Assembly (NCBI GenBank): GCA_016208495.1
Contig: JACQXX010000089.1
Coordinates: 1 to 39,638 of the forward strand
DNA: 39,638 bases
From: Acidobacteriota bacterium
GTDB taxonomy: Bacteria > Acidobacteriota > Blastocatellia > Chloracidobacteriales > Chloracidobacteriaceae
Direction: 5' to 3'
Shown: positions 27,273-37,152 of the stretch, one piece after another
Position numbering within the stretch: the first letter of the stretch is position 1
Layout of the letters: each line of letters begins with the position of its first letter
Notes under the pieces: model-generated
What the model was told of the DNA's origin: nothing
Seen by the model: only the letters and a program-made list of their open reading frames with translations
Database searches by the model: none
Made by a program: the position numbers and the translations under genes

Positions 27273-28265
27273 CTATTTACTGACCCACGCCATCATTGCT
27301 GCGGTGTAGCGTGGACCCGCAATTCCTGGCGGGAACAATCGGTCAAGTTCCTCAAGCTCATCACCCGAAAGCTCGACATCCAGGGCACCCAGGTTGTCTT
27401 CAAGATACTTCACCCGCTTGGTACCAGGAATTGGCACAATATCTTCGCCCTGGGCCAGCACCCAGGCCAGAGCTAACTGAGCCGGAGTACAGCCTTTGCG
27501 GGCAGCCAGTGCCTTGACATGAGCGGCCAGTTCAAGGTTTTTCTGAAACGCTTCGTCTTGAAAGCGCGGGTTGGTTCGGCGAAAGTCGTTTTCACCAATC
27601 TCAGCCGTGCTTTGGATGACACCGGTGAGAAATCCGCGTCCAAGCGGACTAAATGGCACAAACCCAATTCCCAGTTCCCGGCAGGCAGTGAAGACGCCAT
27701 TGGTTTCCGGGTCACGCGTCCAGAGCGAAAACTCACTCTGCAAGGCCGCGATGGGATGAACTGCTGCCGCCCGGCGCAACGTTTCAGGACCAGCTTCAGA
27801 AAGTCCCAATGCCCGAACCTTTCCAGCCGTGACCAGTTCGGCCATCACCCCGACCGTTTCTTCAATCGGGAAAGCCGGGTCCACCCGATGTTGATAGAAC
27901 AAATCTATAGTTTCAATTCCAAGTCGGCGCAGGCTGTCGTCACAGACTTTGCGAATGTTATCTGGCGAACTATTCAGACCAGTTGGCGCACCGGTTTGCG
28001 GGTCAATCCGGAAGCCAAATTTGGTGGCGATGACGAGCTTTTCACGCGGTACTTCGCGGAGAAACCGGCCTAATAATTCTTCGTTCTTGTATGGTCCGTA
28101 CACTTCCGCAGTATCAAGGAAATTCCCACCAAGCTCCACATACCGATGGAGAACCCGCATGGATTCGGCATCGTCAGGCACACCGTAGGCGTGTGACATT
28201 CCCATACAGCCCAGGCCCAGCGCCGAGACGACCAGGCCATTTCTTCCGAGTTTGCGCTGCTGCAT
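27273..28265 (-). CDS. Aldo/keto reductase
   Basis: A 330-residue NADP-dependent aldo/keto reductase with a full-length TIM barrel. It opens [25 protein letters not shown], typical of the AKR11/AKR13-like bacterial group. The catalytic tetrad is complete: Asp51 and Tyr56 in [11 protein letters not shown], Lys82 in VIATKFGF and His126 in FYQHRVD. The cofactor loop [16 protein letters not shown] is present near the C-terminus. Such enzymes reduce aldehydes or ketones; the substrate is unknown. The ATG at 28265 is well supported by AAAGGAG seven bases upstream. It is divergent from the VIT-VWA gene and convergent with the REC-kinase. Confidence 0.94.
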
Positions 28266-28520
28266 CAATTGTCTCCTTTGCTCACTATTTCTGAAAACTG
28301 AGGAAGTCTGGTCAACAGGAAGTTGTTGCCAGACCAGAGGCTTTGGTTCAGGCCCGAAACTATGGCGCGGCTATCCCGGCAATGCAATTCATCTTTCCTT
28401 TCGCTGTTGTCCCAGGCGGACAGATGGAACTCTAAATGGATTCCCAGGAACTAATTTTCCTAACCGGTGTCCAACTCGACCAATGCTTCCGAACAAATCA
28501 AACATTGGAGGTAGACGTCT

Positions 28521-31163
28521 ATGCGTCGAACAGGACAAGTGTGTCTTCTGGTTGGGTTTATGACCTTGTTGATCGCAGGGATACTCTGGCAATGTCAGTC
28601 AACGGTTTATGCCGATGGAGCCATCAATCCAGGCAGTGGCATGCTGATGGTACTCGATTCCAATGGACAGATTGCCTCAGATTGCCCGCTCCGTAAAACC
28701 GAAGTTTCCGCCACTATCAGTGGCCCGATTACCCGAGTGAACGTTACCCAAATTTTTTATAACCCGAACAATCATCCAATTGAAGCCATTTACCTTTTTC
28801 CACTCTCAAATCATGCGGCAGTTGATGGGATGACTATTCATATTGGTACGCGTCGGATTGTCGGCAAAATCAACCGCCGCGAAGAAGCCGAGCGCATCTA
28901 CCAGGCGGCACGCCAGTCGGGACGAACGGCTGCCCTGCTCACTCAAGAACGACCCAATGTATTTACCCAATCGGTCGCCAATATTGGTCCGAAGGAAGTT
29001 ATTCGGGTTGAAATTACGTATGCTGAAACGCTGAGTTATGAAAATGGTCAGTACCAGTTTGTTTTTCCAACTGTGGTTGGCCCACGATACCAGCCGGTAT
29101 CAAGTTCACAACCAGCCCTGAGTCAACCGCCAGTAACAACCCGGCCCGGCCATACGCTTTCGATCTCTGTCACGATTGATGCCGGTAAACCAGTCCAGCA
29201 CGTTGTTTCAACCAGCCATGCGATCAGGACAACCACAACTTCTGATCACTCAAAGTCCACAGTTCAACTCCAACAAATAAATGAGATTCCAAATCGGGAT
29301 TTTATTCTCACTTATCAAGTTGCGGAAACTGAGATTTCAGACGTTTTACTGACGCATTGTGAAAATAACGATGGGTATTTTACGTTCCTGCTCCATCCAC
29401 CACATCAAGCCAGAGAAGCCGATATTTCCCCAAAGGAAATTGTCTTTGTGGTTGATACTTCGGGATCCATGTCTGGCCCACCCCTTGAAAAAGCCAAAGA
29501 ATGTATTTTCCACTCCCTGGCTCATCTCAACCCACGTGACACGTTTAATCTGATCACCTTCGCCGGCTATACCTCAGTCTTGTTTCCAGAACCAGTGCCC
29601 GCCACAGCCGAGAATATCGAGCAGGCCAAAGCCGTGCTGGACCGACAGGTTGGCGGTGGCGGGACGGAAATGATGCCGGCCATCCGAGCCGCGTTGGCAC
29701 CCTCTGACGAGCAGGATCACCTGCGAATTGTATGCTTTATGACCGATGGCTATGTGGGCAACGAATTTGAAATCCTGGGTGAAATTCAACTGCACCCAAA
29801 TGCCCGTGTTTTTTCTTTTGGAGTTGGCGAAGGAGTCAATCGGTTTTTGCTCGACACGATGGCACTCGAAGGCGGAGGCGAAGCTGAATATGTCCAGCTT
29901 GCTGCAGATGCGGGAAAAGTTGCATCCAGGTTTTATGAGCGGGTGCGAAACCCACTCCTGACAGATATGTGGATTGATTGGGGCGGGCTTGGAGTTCAAC
30001 AGGTTTTCCCGATGCGAATTCCAGATTTGTTTTCAGCCAAACCCGTGATTATCGCCGGGCGATATGCCCAACCAGGCGCTGAAGTGATTCACCTGCATGG
30101 AAAACTGGGCGGTCGTCCATTTGTCCGGGCCATCAAGGTTGAATTCCCAGAACGCAATTCAGACCATGAGGTGTTAAGGACACTTTGGGCCCGCAAAGCG
30201 CTCGATCATCTCCAGTCAGAGGCGTTTGGACAACCCCAATGGTATGACTCATCAGAACCAAAAAACAAAGAAGCCATTGTTCAACTGGGGCTTACCTACC
30301 GCCTCATGACCCAATACACCGCCTTTGTCGCAGTTGAAGAAACTCCCCGGTTTGAAAATCAAATGCCGTTGACTCAAATGGTGCCTGTGGCTGGCCCAGA
30401 AGGAACCGCATTTGCAAATACCTCGACAGGATCCTCTTCTGGAGAAGCCGCTCCTGAAGATTTTTCAATGTTGGGAATGGTCAAGAAAGTCAGTCTGGAG
30501 TTCATCAGTTTGATCCTGGGTCTGTTTCTGGCCGCAAGTTTCTGCCTGGCGATTGGCGTCGAACGCTGGCTCACCTGCTACACTGCCCGGAATCAAAACC
30601 AGCGTTTGAAAAAACGTCTGAATCAACGACCCAAAAACCGCGACCCACGTCACCTCCTTGAAACGATTGCTGCCTTTCCGAAAAGCACAACTGGCCAGGT
30701 TCTGACCGCCGGGCTGATGGAAATGCGGCAACCAGAATTTGTAAATCTTTCCAGGTATGCTCAGGTTGAGGTTGTTCAAAATCGAATTCGCCAGGCGCAA
30801 ATCCAGCGGACACAACGCTTACGACAAGGACTCAGGGAATTATCAACCACTGGGTGGCTGGTCATTCTGGCGGGATGTGCTGGCGGGATATATTTTGGTT
30901 ATCGAACAGTACTCTATATCTTCTTTACCAAATACACCTGCGCCTTCAGTCTCGGCGAGCTTTCAGAACAACTGCTTCCAATCCCGTTTGGTTTCCTGGT
31001 TGGTATTGCCGCGCTTTGGATGTACACATGGTTGAATGCCAATGTCGAGCGGCACGTTCTTGAAACCGAAACTTCGGTGGCTGAAGTGATGAAAGATATT
31101 CAAGCGGCAGGTGCCGCCAACCAGACGACCGATGCTGTGGCGGAAGTCCTTGCCGCAGATTAA
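28521..31163 (+). CDS. VIT-VWA protein with C-terminal ExbB/TolQ-like membrane domain
   Basis: An 880-residue protein with a strong GGAGG nine bases before the ATG. It has a signal peptide (about 1-32), a VIT domain (about 35-170, with the IEAIYLFPLSNHAAVDGM core) and a linker domain. The VWA domain (about 305-480) has a complete MIDAS: DTSGSMSG, the Thr in GGGGTEMMPA and TDGYVG. After about residue 640 it has a helix (about 660-683, FISLILGLFLAASFCLAIGV). A basic cytoplasmic loop and two more helices follow (about 778-800 and 814-838). The end SEQLLPIPFGFLVGIAALWMYTWLNANVERHVLETE closely resembles the last helix of ExbB/TolQ/MotA subunits. Export of the VIT-VWA part agrees with ExbB topology. 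This suggests a proton-channel-type subunit with a periplasmic metal-binding adhesion head. No ExbD partner is adjacent. Confidence 0.85.
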   Translation: MRRTGQVCLLVGFMTLLIAGILWQCQSTVYADGAINPGSGMLMVLDSNGQIASDCPLRKTEVSATISGPITRVNVTQIFYNPNNHPIEAIYLFPLSNHAAVDGMTIHIGTRRIVGKINRREEAERIYQAARQSGRTAALLTQERPNVFTQSVANIGPKEVIRVEITYAETLSYENGQYQFVFPTVVGPRYQPVSSSQPALSQPPVTTRPGHTLSISVTIDAGKPVQHVVSTSHAIRTTTTSDHSKSTVQLQQINEIPNRDFILTYQVAETEISDVLLTHCENNDGYFTFLLHPPHQAREADISPKEIVFVVDTSGSMSGPPLEKAKECIFHSLAHLNPRDTFNLITFAGYTSVLFPEPVPATAENIEQAKAVLDRQVGGGGTEMMPAIRAALAPSDEQDHLRIVCFMTDGYVGNEFEILGEIQLHPNARVFSFGVGEGVNRFLLDTMALEGGGEAEYVQLAADAGKVASRFYERVRNPLLTDMWIDWGGLGVQQVFPMRIPDLFSAKPVIIAGRYAQPGAEVIHLHGKLGGRPFVRAIKVEFPERNSDHEVLRTLWARKALDHLQSEAFGQPQWYDSSEPKNKEAIVQLGLTYRLMTQYTAFVAVEETPRFENQMPLTQMVPVAGPEGTAFANTSTGSSSGEAAPEDFSMLGMVKKVSLEFISLILGLFLAASFCLAIGVERWLTCYTARNQNQRLKKRLNQRPKNRDPRHLLETIAAFPKSTTGQVLTAGLMEMRQPEFVNLSRYAQVEVVQNRIRQAQIQRTQRLRQGLRELSTTGWLVILAGCAGGIYFGYRTVLYIFFTKYTCAFSLGELSEQLLPIPFGFLVGIAALWMYTWLNANVERHVLETETSVAEVMKDIQAAGAANQTTDAVAEVLAAD

Positions 31164-31196
31164 ATACAAGTTGGAAGCACCTGACCTTCTGGCTTA

Positions 31197-31234
31197 TGCT
31201 GGCGCGCTTTCTTTCTGGCGCGCCAGTATTTTTT
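31197..31234 (+). terminator. Rho-independent terminator after VIT-VWA gene
   Basis: CTGGCGCGC (31199-31207) pairs perfectly with GCGCGCCAG (31218-31226), extended by further A-T pairs, and is followed by TATTTTTT. It lies about 35 bases after the stop codon. Confidence 0.9.
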
Positions 31235-31252
31235 GGAGGTTCAACACTTCTT

Positions 31253-32935
31253 ATGCTTGTCCGAATTATAGAATTTCAGATAAAGAAACCACGGAATACA
31301 CGGAACACACAGAAAATAAATCCAGATTCTTCAATAGTTTATAAAACTTCAAAAAATAAAAACTCAGGAAATATTTATCTAAAAAGCTATATCATTGTCT
31401 GGTTGCTCAGCCTGGGTTTGGTTTGCTCTGGGGCCTGTCGGCGGCACAGGGCTGGAACCAGTTCCACCAATCGGGCCGAGCGCCACGAACTGGTCACAGC
31501 CATCATCTCCGCGCCACTGACGTTTGATCCGCGTGGACTGACCTCGGCAGATACCGCCCACGTGCAGCAACTGTTGTTTCGAACGCTCCTCAAGAAAAGT
31601 CACACCTATGGCCTCGAAGCCGATTTGGCCGAAACGTGGGAAATGGATCCGACGGCAGTGCGGCTGGTCGCCAAACTCCGAGCGGGGATCACGTTCCACG
31701 ACGGACGCCCTTGCCGTGCCCAGGATGTGGCCTATACCTACACCAGCATGCTCGCCGAACATACCGGCAAGGCATCGGCTTTTTCAAAACTGGCTGAGGT
31801 CACAGCCCTGGATGAACTGACCGTCGAATTTCGCAATCGTGAACCGAATCCTGGATTACCGGTGGATCTGGTGGCCGTCGGCATTATTCCCGAAGGAAGC
31901 AGCCCCACGATTGCCGATCATCCAATCGGAACCGGCCCCTATCAGGTTGACGCCTACCAGCCCTCGCAATGGATCCGACTGAAGTCGTTTGCCGGCAACA
32001 GCCAGTCTCCACCAAAACCTCAAATCACACTGACCATTCGCATCTTGCCGGATGCCGCCACCCGCGAACTCGAACTGGCCAGCGGCAGCCTCGACTTTCT
32101 GCTTGATGCCGACTTGCAGCCGAGCCAGCTTGAACAATGGAAATCCAATCCAGACTGGAAAGTGACAGTATTCCCTGGCGGTGGTCTGGTTTATCTCTCG
32201 CTCAATACTGAAAATCCGCTCCTGAAATCCGTGAAAGCTCGTCAGGCCCTGGCGCTGGCCATCAATCGCCCTGAAATCATCAACCGTGTTCTGGGCGGAA
32301 ATGCCGAACCGGCCCTGTCGCCGCTCCCGCCCAAACACTGGGCGCTCTCACCTAACCTGATGCGCTTTGACGTTGATCGCCAGCAGGCAACCCGGCTGTG
32401 GCGGGAAGCCAATGGCACGAATCCCGCCAAACTCACGTTGCTGGTCACCGCCGATGCCAATCAACGCCGAATTGGGGAAATCTTGCAGGAAAACTGGCGG
32501 CACATTGGAGTTCAGATCGAACTACACTCGGTTGAAACCGCGCTCTATTTTGAACGGCTGCGGTATGGCGATTATGCGATTGCTCTGGCGAAATTGACCG
32601 GGGGCAACCAGTTTGTCACGATTTTCAAAGGGGCGTTTCATTCGCGAGCGATTCATGTCCGTGGAAACGCTGACACCGGCGAACTTAACTATGCCCGGTA
32701 TCGCAACCCCGACGTTGACGCCCTGATTGATCAGGCACAACAGTCGCCGTTTTCAATGGATCAGGCCACCGAAGCGTCAAAATATCTGGCGGTTCAGGAA
32801 AAAATTGTCCAGGAAGCCCCCTGGATTTTCCTCTGGCACCCAAGCCATGTCCTGGTGGCCCGAACTACGCTTGATGGGTTTGAGTTCCCACCCGGCGGCG
32901 GCGGTGAAGTCTACGCCAGGGCACACTACCGATAA
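31253..32935 (+). CDS. ABC transporter substrate-binding lipoprotein (SBP_bac_5, peptide/nickel type)
   Basis: A 560-residue frame from the ATG at 31253. It has family-5 extracellular solute-binding features: LLFRTLLKKSHTYGLEADLAETWEMDP, LRAGITFHDGRPCRAQDVAYTYTSML, IGTGPYQVDAY and the C-terminal QEAPWIFLWHPSHVLVART. A lipoprotein-like signal (about 42-62, YLKSYIIVWLLSLGLVCSGAC) sits 40 residues in. The preceding text (KKPRNTRNTQKIN) comes from ACGGAATACACGGAACACAC, which looks like spacer repeat. The true start may therefore be a non-ATG codon near 31370; GGAGG at 31235-31239 supports 31253 at 13-base spacing. It would bind oligopeptides or similar ligands in the periplasm. No permease or ATPase genes are adjacent. 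Confidence 0.85.
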   Translation: MLVRIIEFQIKKPRNTRNTQKINPDSSIVYKTSKNKNSGNIYLKSYIIVWLLSLGLVCSGACRRHRAGTSSTNRAERHELVTAIISAPLTFDPRGLTSADTAHVQQLLFRTLLKKSHTYGLEADLAETWEMDPTAVRLVAKLRAGITFHDGRPCRAQDVAYTYTSMLAEHTGKASAFSKLAEVTALDELTVEFRNREPNPGLPVDLVAVGIIPEGSSPTIADHPIGTGPYQVDAYQPSQWIRLKSFAGNSQSPPKPQITLTIRILPDAATRELELASGSLDFLLDADLQPSQLEQWKSNPDWKVTVFPGGGLVYLSLNTENPLLKSVKARQALALAINRPEIINRVLGGNAEPALSPLPPKHWALSPNLMRFDVDRQQATRLWREANGTNPAKLTLLVTADANQRRIGEILQENWRHIGVQIELHSVETALYFERLRYGDYAIALAKLTGGNQFVTIFKGAFHSRAIHVRGNADTGELNYARYRNPDVDALIDQAQQSPFSMDQATEASKYLAVQEKIVQEAPWIFLWHPSHVLVARTTLDGFEFPPGGGGEVYARAHYR

Positions 32936-33146: not shown

Positions 33147-33474
33147 GATCCCACTTCTTTTTCACATCCTACACTGAAGGTTTTCTTTTTCGCGCAAAAC
33201 ACATATAGTTGCTCATCCCCGCTTATCTTAGCCAGAATTCACAGGAAATAACTTCCAGATCCAGGGAAACCGAAAACTCAAACCGCGCACGGCAGGTTCG
33301 TCATTCGGTCAGTTGGCCGGCACTCTCACCTGGGACAGGCTCTTTGCAACTCATTGAACGATCTATCTTTTCAGAGCATCACCGGCGATGCAGGCTCATT
33401 CACCTGGCGGATTCCTGAACCATATCCAAATACAGACTGTTTGCCGAAAGACACCAGCAGAGGAGTTCGTTGCT
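32936..33474. other. Spacer upstream of the 1225-residue protein gene
   Basis: The first 200 bases are the candidate repeat-flanked element (32943-33136). The remaining 340 bases hold no gene that I can support. The A/T-rich stretch TTTTTCGCGCAAAACACATA (33185-33204) is a possible promoter area for the downstream gene. Confidence 0.55.
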
Positions 33475-36400
33475 ATGGAGGACCTTCTTCAGCAGGCAAC
33501 CCTTGATTTCGAGTCCTTTTTGTCAGGTCACAAAGCCCCGGCACTGGTTGGGCATTCGTTGATGACCATCATGAAAAATGATGTGCGTACGATTGCGCAT
33601 ATCACCATGACCTGGGCTGTCAAACAAACTTCGGGGGCCCTTCCCCAAAATCTGATGCAGGCCCGAAACAAGGTTTTTGACATCTTTTTCTATCGCATCG
33701 TTAAATTTGAAGGAATTTATAAATTTTTTCCATTATTCGAAGAGGCGTTGCTTCAATTTTGTCCGCCGAATTTTCGCGGTCAACTCACAGCCCTGTTTGC
33801 GCAATATAGCTGGCAGGATATCCGCCCGATTGGTGATATCAAGGAGCAACCGGTCTTTGCGCTTGAAAAACGGACGGCTGCCGCAGTTCAAGAAGAGCAG
33901 TTCAACGAAGACCTCTATAAAAATGTCACGCATAACATTCTGGCCCTCGAAAGCCGGTTTACCTTTGCCGACGAACAGCAAGGCGCTGAAATGGCCCAGC
34001 ACACGGCCCGCATCAGCACCTTGTTCAAAGATTTCGTCGGGTTGGTCAAAGACAAGGACGCACGTCGCGAAATTATTATTGCCAATGAAGGCGATAAAGA
34101 CGCGATGTATGAAAACAAGAAGAAATTCAATCTTGATGACTACATCGCGCAGTGTCTGGATCTGACCGTTGCGTTTTTCAACGACGATTACCTACTGCAA
34201 AGCGTCCAGATGATGGATTTGCTGGTGGACCTGGCTCAATCCAAGGGTGTTGATTTGGAAAAACACGCCCGGTTTCAAGCCAAATTCAATATGTTCAGCA
34301 CCCGAAAAATCGAGGAGTACACGGCCAGCAAAACCAATCGGTTCCTGGTGCGCTCCTTGCTCGGGCTCTTTACCGAGTGGTATCCAGGCCCGTTGCTCGA
34401 CAAACTACTGGTTGAAGAAAATCGCCGGACCCGACGCGTGATTCTCAATGTGCTGGAATGTTACGGCTATGGGATTTATGAAACCCTGGTCCACGACCTC
34501 ACCAATTGCACCGATCAAACGCCCTGGTATTACATCCGCAACCTGATTTTCCTGTTTGGCAAAATTGTCACCAACGACCCGATGCGGAAAAATCAGGTGG
34601 TTGAACTCGTTGACCGGCATTTAAACCCAAAAAGCGCCCGCCAGGTCAACCTGCAATGTATTTCAACCCTGAGTTTTTTGGCGACCGATCAGGCGGCTGA
34701 CCGATTGATTGAAAAACTGGCGGTATTTCGCAAGCTCCAGGACCCGGTTTCGGTTGACCTGACCAATAAAATTGCACTGACGCTGGCCGCTTTCGAATCT
34801 GACAAAGCCCTGGAATCCGCCATTGAGTTTGCCCAGAAAAACTGGTCCAACGAATTTGCGGAGCGCTTTTCACAGGTGATGCTTCCGAACAGGGTAGTGG
34901 CCAACCTGACCACCAAAATCCGGGCGGAAGTCAAAAAAATGAGATTTTCATTTTCGCTGCTCGGCAATGTTGATTCCGCGCTCAATCTGCTCAAAGCCCT
35001 GGCCTATACCCGCTCGGACGATGTCACCAACCTGTGCAAGGAAATCACGACTTCCCTGCCCGCCAGCAATACACTTCACACCAAGGCCGCCAGTATTTTG
35101 TCACAGGCCGCGGTTGCGCCCCCGCCAGTGTATTGCCCAGATAAATCGTTGAATCGGCTGGCGATAGCCAAAAATATTCCAGAAATGGTGCTCTATATTC
35201 ATGAAGCTGGAATGACTGGGAAATTCAAGGTGCGCACCGTTGACCAGGTTGACTGCTCAATTGATTTTGGTGAAGGCGAAGCGCTCTATGCCGGGATCAG
35301 CGCCCAGTACGTTGATCAGGAAAATGCCTTTTTCTGGACATTCCTGCTTGAATCCCGCGACGTGTTGCAAGTCACATTTGGGCCCAAAACCGGGAGAACC
35401 GGGACCCTGAGCGGGTTACAACTTGAAAAGGAAACCCAGCGGCTCATTCACGAAGGACTGGTCCAGAAAGGCGAAGTTCAGCAAATCGTTGGGAGTGAAA
35501 TCCTGCCTGACTCTCGCTTTAGTCAGCGGCCAGTCGGTGCCTATTTCCTGCAATTCAAAGATGCCGATGATCCCGCCAAGTGCCGATTGGTCTGGCAGGC
35601 ACTCAAAAACAACCCGGATATCGTCGCCCTGCAGCAGGCGACCCGGCTCGGCAAGTACGATCTCTACAAAGTTCTGTTTTATATGCTGAAACAGAACATG
35701 ATCGAAATTGACGCCCACAAAAAGTCCCACGAAATCAGCAGCGCCATCAACGATTCGCTGTCAATGCTCATTACCTATCTGCAGCGAATCGAACGCAAAC
35801 CGGTCTTGTTCAATGCGTACAAGGCGGCCTCCGAAGTCTGTGAAGACATTGTCAACAACACCCCGGACGAAGTGGTCAAGTTTGCCATGGACGTCATGCG
35901 CAAGTACTTCTGGAATGCGTATGCCACCCGGCAAATCTTTGTGGCGGCCAACCTGGCGGTCTGCCAGCAGGTCATCAATCTGGTGGGGACCTATGCCAAG
36001 ACCAAATCGGCTGACAGCAAGGAAGCGTTGCTCAGTTATATCGAGTTTTCCTTTCAGGAACAGGATACAAACCTGGCCCCGCCGCCCCCGCCCGAGCCAG
36101 AACCAAATATCCTGCAAAAAATTGAAAACATTGAATTTGCCAACGATGCCTTTGATGAATTCGAAATCGGCTTTGACGAAGATTCAATTAACGACATGTT
36201 TGGCGTGCTGGAAAATCAGCTCCACGCGACCGGGGCGGATCTCCCCAGCTTTGGTCAGGATGCCGGGTTGACCGAACACGAAGAGCAGATGTTGATGGAA
36301 CTCTATGACAACATTGCCGTCGCGTATGTCAAACCGCTCAAAGACTTTATTCGTGAAATCAAGCTGAACCTCAAAATCAATCGCCAGACATCGCTCGAAT

Positions 36401-37152
36401 GGATTGAAATGGTTGAACCATCGGTCAATCTGCTTTTTGGTTCAGCCGAAAAAATGGGATATACCAAAATCTGCGATTCGCTGGGTGAAATGCAGCGCGT
36501 GTTTCAGGATCAGAAAACCGTACCGGATCTGACCTATTTGCTTGATGATGCGGTGCAGGGACTGTTGTTTTACTATGACCGGCTTTCGACGCTGCTCCCC
36601 AAAACCTTTGCGCTTGATCTCTCAGACACCGACCTGAACAGCAAGAAAGAAGTCCTGATCGTTAAGTTCATCCTCAAGCAGATTCCGGAAATCAATGAAA
36701 AGATGATGAATCGGATCATCCTGGCCGGGCTTTCGACCTTTGACAAATTTATGCACAGCAGCCCGGATGAAATCTCAGCCGTGACGGGTCTGTCTAAACG
36801 CCATGGTGAAGATGTGTTTATGAAGTTCTATCAGTACCGGCACATCTATTACCGCCACGACGATGACGAGTATAAAGACAAATTCCTGCAGATGTTTGAC
36901 GTAAAGTTCAACATCCTGCGCGAAATCCACATGGAAATTGAGAGCATTCTGGCCAGCAACCAGGCCGACAAGGAAGAAAACAAGGCGCGGGTCAATTCAC
37001 TCAAAATGGACCGCCAGCGAACGCTGTGGGCGATTTTCATTTTGTTGTGTATCAAGGAAGAATACGACCTGATCGAAGCCGTCCAGCAGGCGGTCTATGA
37101 TGTCCGATTGCAAAAACTGGAAGAATATCTGAACCACCTGACAACCCTGTAA
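33475..37152 (+). CDS. Large HEAT-like / PATAN(DUF4388)-like / HhH protein of unknown function
   Basis: A 1225-residue, apparently cytoplasmic protein with no signal peptide or membrane helices. The ATG at 33475 has GAGGAG nine bases upstream. The first 560 residues are helical, with HEAT-like repeats (about 300-475, e.g. QVNLQCISTLSFLATDQAADRLIEKL). Residues about 570-755 resemble a PATAN/DUF4388 module: GMTGKFKVRTVDQ, IDFGEGEALYAG, then a winged-helix-like YDLYKVLFYMLKQNMIEI. A Pro-rich linker (APPPPPEPEPN, about 869) and an acidic stretch follow. Next is a helical bundle (about 930-1015) reminiscent of Hpt/chemotaxis phosphotransfer folds but without the phospho-His. The C-terminus has a helix-hairpin-helix-like segment (about 1080-1120, AGLSTFDKFMHSSPDEISAVTGLSKRHGEDVFMKF). 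PATAN-type modules usually act in regulation of surface motility or pili; that role here is inference only. Confidence 0.72.
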   Translation: MEDLLQQATLDFESFLSGHKAPALVGHSLMTIMKNDVRTIAHITMTWAVKQTSGALPQNLMQARNKVFDIFFYRIVKFEGIYKFFPLFEEALLQFCPPNFRGQLTALFAQYSWQDIRPIGDIKEQPVFALEKRTAAAVQEEQFNEDLYKNVTHNILALESRFTFADEQQGAEMAQHTARISTLFKDFVGLVKDKDARREIIIANEGDKDAMYENKKKFNLDDYIAQCLDLTVAFFNDDYLLQSVQMMDLLVDLAQSKGVDLEKHARFQAKFNMFSTRKIEEYTASKTNRFLVRSLLGLFTEWYPGPLLDKLLVEENRRTRRVILNVLECYGYGIYETLVHDLTNCTDQTPWYYIRNLIFLFGKIVTNDPMRKNQVVELVDRHLNPKSARQVNLQCISTLSFLATDQAADRLIEKLAVFRKLQDPVSVDLTNKIALTLAAFESDKALESAIEFAQKNWSNEFAERFSQVMLPNRVVANLTTKIRAEVKKMRFSFSLLGNVDSALNLLKALAYTRSDDVTNLCKEITTSLPASNTLHTKAASILSQAAVAPPPVYCPDKSLNRLAIAKNIPEMVLYIHEAGMTGKFKVRTVDQVDCSIDFGEGEALYAGISAQYVDQENAFFWTFLLESRDVLQVTFGPKTGRTGTLSGLQLEKETQRLIHEGLVQKGEVQQIVGSEILPDSRFSQRPVGAYFLQFKDADDPAKCRLVWQALKNNPDIVALQQATRLGKYDLYKVLFYMLKQNMIEIDAHKKSHEISSAINDSLSMLITYLQRIERKPVLFNAYKAASEVCEDIVNNTPDEVVKFAMDVMRKYFWNAYATRQIFVAANLAVCQQVINLVGTYAKTKSADSKEALLSYIEFSFQEQDTNLAPPPPPEPEPNILQKIENIEFANDAFDEFEIGFDEDSINDMFGVLENQLHATGADLPSFGQDAGLTEHEEQMLMELYDNIAVAYVKPLKDFIREIKLNLKINRQTSLEWIEMVEPSVNLLFGSAEKMGYTKICDSLGEMQRVFQDQKTVPDLTYLLDDAVQGLLFYYDRLSTLLPKTFALDLSDTDLNSKKEVLIVKFILKQIPEINEKMMNRIILAGLSTFDKFMHSSPDEISAVTGLSKRHGEDVFMKFYQYRHIYYRHDDDEYKDKFLQMFDVKFNILREIHMEIESILASNQADKEENKARVNSLKMDRQRTLWAIFILLCIKEEYDLIEAVQQAVYDVRLQKLEEYLNHLTTL

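What the first reader, a model, noticed from the sequence alone, without database searches (positions are those of the whole stretch)
28521..31163. VIT-VWA head fused to an ExbB/TolQ-like channel domain
The last about 220 residues have three helices, a large basic loop between helices 1 and 2, and an end that reads like ExbB/TolQ/MotA. The predicted topology agrees: exported VIT-VWA, cytoplasmic loop, cytoplasmic tail. A proton-channel-type subunit carrying its own periplasmic MIDAS domain would be a new kind of energised envelope machine.
Basis: partly seen in the sequence, partly recalled or inferred. Interest (0 to 1): 0.75.

Follow-up and report, generated by a model that had tools for sequence, protein, structure and literature searches.

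The report
Adhesion-type head on a dead motor ring
One bacterial gene joins an exported VIT-VWA binding head to what looks like a copy of the cell's own ExbB motor subunit, but the copy has lost residues needed to pass protons, so it is more likely a re-used membrane anchor than a new motor.

Summary
ORF 28521-31163 encodes a signal peptide, VIT, VWA with complete MIDAS, and an ExbB/TolQ-family domain (residues 642-858). Homology is firm: NCBIfam TolQ E=1.1e-5; the genome's own ExbB, 30%, E=7.5e-23; a profile of 18 ExbBs of the class, 85 bits, against 8.8 for the best of 1000 shuffles.

The "proton channel" reading is not supported. The tail keeps 29 of 73 residues invariant in 18 ExbBs; the head keeps 135 of 141 invariant in 21 relatives. 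Both Thr of the proton ring are gone (G789, I821), as is the TolA-docking Ser (A672). The entrance Glu (E816) and 8 of 9 invariant Gly remain. No ExbD lies on this contig, and a terminator-like hairpin follows the gene.

Unexpected: the likely parent is exbB of the genome's tonB-exbB-exbD(x3) operon, and a second VIT-VWA paralogue ends in a copy of tonB from that same operon. Six of 44 VIT-VWA frames scanned carry TonB_C.

Best reading: a retired ExbB re-used as membrane anchor for VIT-VWA heads. Single known case; new variant of known vWA-TolQ links.

The parts
28521..31163 (+). whole fusion gene, 880 aa plus TAA
   Evidence: open frame
28521..28613 (+). Sec-type signal peptide, residues 1-31 (hydrophobic core 7-25; cleavage after VYA is my reading)
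   Evidence: hydropathy; no signal-peptide program was run
28689..29021 (+). VIT domain, residues 57-167
   Evidence: Pfam PF08487 E 4.9e-34
29436..29888 (+). VWA domain, residues 306-456; MIDAS D312, S314, S316 (29454-29468), T382 (29664-29666), D409 (29745-29747)
   Evidence: Pfam; in the alignment of 44 VIT-VWA frames both D and both S are invariant and T is nearly invariant (numbered there two higher); positions checked; the name MIDAS is recalled
30408..30443 (+). Ser/Thr/Gly linker, residues 630-641
   Evidence: sequence
30444..31094 (+). ExbB/TolQ-derived domain, residues 642-858
30444..30491 (+). junction and periplasmic helix 1, residues 642-657; 13 of 15 aligned residues identical to the genome's own ExbB
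30492..30569 (+). TM1, residues 658-683; the position of TolQ S28 is A672 at 30534-30536
30570..30836 (+). basic cytoplasmic loop, residues 684-772
   Evidence: charge count over 679-775; alignment
30837..30917 (+). TM2, residues 773-799; position of TolQ T145 is G789 at 30885-30887, of L142 C786, of P138 I782
30954..31040 (+). TM3, residues 812-840; TolQ E173 kept as E816 at 30966-30968, T178 position is I821 at 30981-30983
31196..31229 (+). intrinsic-terminator-like hairpin (13 pairs, T tail) starting 33 nt after the stop codon; suggests that the gene ends its own transcription unit
   Evidence: 6 terminator-like sites found in 28200-31700, 4.7 expected in shuffles; this stem has 13 pairs, the others 5-7

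Best explanation
The protein is an inner-membrane-anchored VIT-VWA protein. Its ancestor's C-terminus was replaced by a copy of ExbB, most likely the genome's own, cut just after ExbB's N-terminal hydrophobic leader, so that the head hangs from ExbB's periplasmic end (read from sequence). The copy then lost its proton-path residues and its TolA/TonB-docking Ser but kept an open frame, three membrane helices and the packing glycines (shown). I infer that it now serves as a non-conducting membrane module that anchors, and perhaps clusters, metal-dependent VIT-VWA heads in the periplasm. It may sit near the Ton complex, since a sister VIT-VWA protein carries the TonB tail of the same operon (association inferred, not shown).
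For: Homology to ExbB. Parent: best hit is the genome's own ExbB (82.9 bits against 76.7 for the next genome); 13 of 15 junction residues are identical to it, while 17 other ExbBs average 46% there; 38 of 45 nucleotides identical. Head constrained, 135 of 141; tail released, 29 of 73, whereas in leave-one-out the lowest real ExbB keeps 73 of 80. Invariant Gly kept 8 of 9, other invariants 21 of 64, Fisher p 0.002 (classes counted by hand). Role of the lost residues: passages of PMC12583513 and PMC12965293. Frame kept open. VIT-VWA-TonB_C sister from the same operon.
Against: Singleton: no second species to show that the tail is conserved. The tree of the tail does not put it beside own ExbB: its branch length is 10 and the nearest row by path is another genome's ExbB paralogue, so the parentage rests on the best hit and the junction. 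The head too has a long branch (1.54, median 0.3). E816 (TolQ E173) is kept, which plain anchoring would not need. Thr777 and Ser673 lie close to lost positions and might partly compensate. Oligomerisation was not tested. The tail model is weak (pLDDT 65.6).
Confidence: 0.55

Rival explanations
1. The tail joins the genome's native ExbB in mixed pentamers, so that one or a few VIT-VWA heads are carried on the Ton motor and either regulate it or are moved by it.
For: Likely parent is the ExbB of the one Pfam-level MotA_ExbB locus, which is flanked by TonB and ExbDs; helix 1 and Gly are kept; a sister protein carries TonB_C of the same operon; in TolQ the Thr-to-Ala mutants were still pulled down by TolR (PMC12965293 passage).
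Against: TM2, which with TM3 forms the ring core (PMC12583513 passage), is only 6 of 26 identical; docking Ser lost; no interface could be modelled; the gene is not in the ton operon and seems to end its own transcription unit.
Confidence: 0.25
2. One reading: an autonomous proton-driven channel subunit with its own MIDAS head, using an ExbD partner encoded elsewhere.
For: Near full-length TolQ match; fitting hydropathy and charge; E816 kept; three ExbDs with the membrane Asp, plus an orphan ExbD-like protein on contig C74.
Against: Thr ring and docking Ser lost, and 44 of 73 ExbB invariants. The orphan ExbD-like protein has no Asp in its membrane helix, and its best homologue is in genome G001, where no fusion is among the listed matches.
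Confidence: 0.08
3. A recent, largely useless chimaera: the head works and the tail is drifting.
For: Seen in one genome only, in the listed matches; 44 of 73 invariant positions of the tail changed.
Against: No stop in the tail, at a divergence at which neutral drift over 227 codons gives a mean of 9.1 stops; hydrophobic stretches kept and Gly kept selectively.
Confidence: 0.12

Closest known systems
ExbB/TolQ (energiser subunits of the Ton and Tol systems; PDB 5sv0, 8odt)
   Same: Three TM helices in the same order, basic cytoplasmic loop, periplasmic N-terminus, the E173 equivalent, packing Gly
   Different: 880-aa fusion with a VIT-VWA head; proton-ring Thr and docking Ser absent; no exbD on the contig
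vWA force transducers beside TolQ-like genes (PMC12204202; section 8 read whole, other passages by term)
   Same: Link between a VWA fold and TolQ-family motors
   Different: There the VWA is a separate protein with its own TM helix; in the second of its two families the modelled motor ring keeps its Thr; that section mentions no VIT domain. Here VWA and ExbB are one chain and the ring Thr are lost
TtpC of Vibrio TonB2 systems (PMC6957404, passages; that TtpC is ExbB-like with a long periplasmic N-terminus is recalled)
   Same: An extra protein beside an ordinary ExbB in a Ton system; long periplasmic N-terminus on an ExbB-like body (recalled)
   Different: TtpC2 is encoded in the tonB2 operon and is essential for that system; no VIT-VWA known to me; not compared here by sequence
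TIGR03788 VIT-VWA sortase targets; PARP4 and ITIH VIT-VWA proteins
   Same: Same head (NCBIfam 475.8 bits over 59-635; PDB PARP4, ITIH4, ITIH1)
   Different: Score is below TIGR03788's cut-off of 551.65; three Enterovibrio relatives end, by eye, in a single TM-like stretch, not in ExbB

Membership tests
VIT-VWA proteins | VIT domain followed by VWA with MIDAS residues | tested here: met
MotA/TolQ/ExbB family (by descent) | significant sequence similarity over the whole three-helix domain | tested here: met
   E 7.5e-23; 85.2 bits; E 1.1e-5; but Pfam 16.8 bits is below its cut-off and phmmer against PDB sequences gave nothing
working ExbB/TolQ proton channel | Thr ring in TM2 and TM3 (TolQ T145, T178) | tested here: not met
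   G789 and I821 in three alignments
working ExbB/TolQ proton channel | periplasmic-entrance Glu (TolQ E173) | tested here: met
   E816
working ExbB/TolQ proton channel | Ser in TM1 that bonds TolA His22 (TolQ S28) | tested here: not met
   A672; S673 is adjacent
working ExbB/TolQ proton channel | exbD/tolR partner gene alongside | tested here: not met
   whole-genome ExbD search at E up to 10: four matches, on contigs C70 and C74
working ExbB/TolQ proton channel | pentameric assembly | not testable with these tools
   no complex prediction offered
working ExbB/TolQ proton channel | fold by structure comparison | tested here: inconclusive
   Foldseek's first 22 rows are all from ExbB or TolQ entries, but E is 0.01 or worse, TM-scores by query length 0.24-0.35, rmsd about 14-17 A; VIA-align's 50 rows list none; model pLDDT 65.6
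TolQ-linked vWA transducers of PMC12204202 | own TM helix with SHLS, or with a transpore Asp, before the VWA | tested here: not met
   by inspection of the sequence: the N-terminal hydrophobic stretch, residues 7-25, has neither

The most novel reading that the evidence does not exclude
VIT-VWA heads are accessory parts of the Ton complex in this class of bacteria, plugged in covalently at two places: on the transducer side (VIT-VWA-TonB_C) and on the stator ring (VIT-VWA-ExbB). Metal-dependent binding by the head would then be mechanically linked to, or would gate, a proton-driven envelope motor through mixed pentamers with native ExbB.
Probability: 0.18. Interest if true: 0.75.

Novelty: new variant of a known kind. 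Interest (0 to 1): 0.5.

Why it matters
It is a natural experiment in which a motor subunit was copied, stripped of its proton path and apparently re-used while keeping its fold features. That pieces of two neighbouring genes of one Ton operon sit on two VIT-VWA paralogues suggests a functional tie between VIT-VWA proteins and Ton systems, which can be tested in relatives carrying the VIT-VWA-TonB_C form. If the tail enters native ExbB rings, it would be a new way to hang a binding head on a proton-driven motor.

Tried and rejected
Other fusions: the tail was searched in 162 genomes of the class (147 with a match) and 396 of the phylum (324 with a match). Every listed row other than the window's own is a frame of at most 567 aa, but both lists were cut ("more matches are not listed"), so weaker fusions could be missed. 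Six of the longer frames were opened: the ExbB-like frames are 567, 453, 436, 354, 231 and 224 aa, the first four with extra open sequence upstream, and no frame of 200 aa or more in those six stretches matches the VIT-VWA head. Genome contigs gave only three Enterovibrio VIT-VWA loci. The plasmid search and two viral scans gave none.

Orphan ExbD-like protein on C74 as partner of the tail: rejected as evidence. Its membrane helix has no Asp, nor has the G001 homologue's; among the listed matches of G001, those to the head end by residue 634 and the ExbB one is a 289-aa frame (not all G001 matches are listed).

Operon with the downstream SBP_bac_5 gene: unlikely. Its mechanical ATG at 31196 lies in the terminator-like hairpin.

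Trees: the tail's place is not usable (branch length 10; nearest by path is L071, not own ExbB). The head has no supported sister.

Structure: the full-length model with four sequences failed (pLDDT 40.8). The tail alone, single sequence, gave pLDDT 65.6 with long helices where ExbB has them. VIA-align listed no ExbB or TolQ among 50 rows. Structure therefore adds little.

TonB-tail ranking: with BLAST's composition correction on, the own-operon TonB did not appear in the C107 list and the operon TonB of genome G001 was first (73% over 94); with it off, the own-operon TonB was first (58% over 174). For L007 and L008 the best row was the operon TonB of the other genome of that pair; for L022 it was that of genome G038, and nothing from the stretch fetched for L022's own genome (L104) appeared. 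Only for the window's genome were all TonB_C places fetched as rivals; for the five other tails the rivals were operon TonBs and this genome's TonBs, so their ranking is weaker evidence.

Rows dropped: of 46 VIT-VWA frames found in the loci two fragments (L081, L087) were left out of the 44 scanned; further VIT-VWA matches were not fetched. The 18 ExbBs are those I chose to fetch, from 17 genomes.

Paper searches: VIT domain with VWA domain and ExbB (0 papers), VIT domain with TonB (0), VIT domain with VWA and sortase (0), von Willebrand with TonB and inter-alpha-trypsin (1, unrelated by title and abstract), ExbB with degenerate-channel words (14, 10 listed, none about such a fusion by title or abstract start). 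Searches gave only PMC12204202. The library holds open-licence PMC papers only.

Full report
WHAT IS THERE. The frame 28521-31163 (+) encodes 880 residues: a Sec-type signal peptide, VIT (57-167), VWA (306-456) with D312, S314, S316, T382 and D409 of the MIDAS, a short Ser/Gly linker, and a C-terminal domain with three hydrophobic stretches. The MIDAS name is recalled; the conservation is.

IS THE TAIL ExbB/TolQ? Yes, by descent. NCBIfam TolQ matches positions 2-210 of 216 at E 1.1e-5, far below that model's own cut-off. The tail finds the genome's own ExbB at E 7.5e-23. A profile of 18 ExbBs from 17 genomes of the class scores the tail at 85.2 bits; of 1000 block-shuffled copies 908 were reported, the best at 8.8; no other of 284 window frames is hit. 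phmmer of the tail against PDB sequences found nothing, while own ExbB finds TolQ and ExbB at E between about 1e-26 and 5e-23. Foldseek's first 22 rows are from ExbB or TolQ entries, but at E 0.01 or worse with TM-scores of 0.24-0.35 from a weak model, and VIA-align lists none among 50 rows.

WHERE THE TAIL CAME FROM. The fusion begins at position 36 of that ExbB's open frame, just after its N-terminal hydrophobic stretch. From there 13 of 15 aligned residues and 38 of 45 nucleotides are identical to own ExbB. This is normally a variable end of ExbB (17 others average 46% identity to own ExbB there), whereas TM2, normally 93% alike, is 6 of 26. Third-position identity is 10 of 15 in the first codons and 41 of 135 after them (Fisher p 0.008). 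I read this as descent from own ExbB with an unusual rate in the rest, or as a short gene-conversion tract at the junction; these are not separated. The tree of the tail does not help: its branch is 10 changes per column long and its nearest row by path is another genome's paralogue.

WHAT THE TAIL LOST AND KEPT. Of 73 columns invariant in the 18 ExbBs the fusion keeps 29; in leave-one-out each real ExbB keeps most of the others' invariants (lowest 73 of 80). For the head, 135 of 141 columns invariant in 21 relatives are kept (leave-one-out range of the relatives 90-100%). Own ExbB has the numbering of E. coli TolQ. Mapping gives S28 to A672, P138 to I782, L142 to C786, T145 to G789, T178 to I821, and E173 to E816, kept. 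The two Thr and the Glu positions agree in the MAFFT, pairwise and profile alignments. T145 and T178 form the polar ring that meets TolR D23, E173 marks the periplasmic entrance, and S28 bonds TolA His22 (PMC12583513, passages). Under rifampicin TolQ L142A and T145A are severe and T178A moderate in growth tests, while these mutants are still pulled down by TolR (PMC12965293, passages). Invariant glycines are kept 8 of 9, other invariants 21 of 64 (p 0.002). So packing seems kept and pore chemistry lost. The frame is not decaying: 0 of 2000 neutral runs to the same nucleotide identity stayed free of stops (mean 9.1).

THE SISTER PROTEIN. A second VIT-VWA paralogue in the same genome (contig C107, 50% identical to the head) ends in TonB_C (E 8.4e-15). 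Its linker and TonB domain match the TonB of the C70 operon at 58% over 174 aa (184 bits); the next TonB frame of this genome, all TonB_C places having been fetched, scores 110 bits (composition correction off). Six of 44 VIT-VWA frames scanned have TonB_C, and for each the best row among the TonB frames I fetched is a TonB lying next to exbB, of the same or another genome of the class (the rivals fetched were limited for the five other tails, see Tried and rejected). So two VIT-VWA paralogues of one genome carry pieces of two adjacent genes of one Ton operon. This was not in the finding and is, to me, the more interesting fact.

DISTRIBUTION. In 58 genomes searched with the whole protein (55 with a match) no other listed row runs from the head past residue 658 (list cut). 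In 162 class genomes and 396 phylum genomes all listed tail matches other than the window's are in frames of at most 567 aa (lists cut); six of the longer ones were opened with no VIT-VWA found. No other genome of the window's genus is in these results.

CONTEXT. Upstream are a response-regulator/histidine-kinase protein and, on the other strand, an aldo/keto reductase; downstream is an SBP_bac_5 protein. A 13-pair hairpin with a T tail begins 33 nt after the stop. The genome-wide ExbD search has no match on this contig.

HOW IT MOST LIKELY WORKS. Shown: VIT-VWA head with signal peptide, ExbB-derived tail, loss of proton-path residues, retention of hydrophobic stretches and Gly. Inferred: the tail holds the head in the inner membrane and perhaps clusters it; whether it meets native ExbB is open. 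The head's ligand is unknown.

COMPARISON. Published vWA transducers linked to TolQ-like motors are separate proteins with their own TM helix, and in one of the two families the modelled motor ring keeps its Thr (PMC12204202, section 8 read). I found no report of a VIT-VWA-ExbB or VIT-VWA-TonB fusion, which cover open-licence PMC papers only.

Noticed in passing
L054:5541-8069 (own genome, contig C107): VIT-VWA paralogue ending in TonB_C, tail 58% identical over 174 aa to the TonB of the exbB operon.
   Followed up: yes
L053:5787-6227 (own genome, contig C74): Orphan ExbD-like protein whose membrane helix has no Asp; a homologue in genome G001 (L097) has none either. Possibly a second retired motor part; it lies beside a long protein that looks TPR-like by eye.
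   Followed up: partly
L052:9590-11097 (own genome, contig C70): Ton operon with three exbD genes in a row after tonB and exbB; the second and third look much alike.
   Followed up: partly
C-terminal ~75 aa of many close VIT-VWA relatives, e.g. L018, L011, L009: A recurring domain (GKAEVQVWL...LGFEV...IGRLPIEKLEALAEL) without a Pfam match in the two members scanned singly that have it without TonB_C (L009, L015); absent from the window protein and from the end of its C107 paralogue.
   Followed up: no
L026, L025, L084, L085: VIT-VWA relatives with a long C-terminal region that by eye looks like alpha-helical repeats; L083 has extra sequence that by eye looks like a second VWA.
   Followed up: no
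window 33388-37152 (+): 1254-aa ORF with no Pfam match over its cut-off.
   Followed up: no
window 31196-32935 (+): SBP_bac_5 gene whose mechanical start lies inside a terminator-like hairpin; the true start is probably downstream, before a lipoprotein-like signal.
   Followed up: partly
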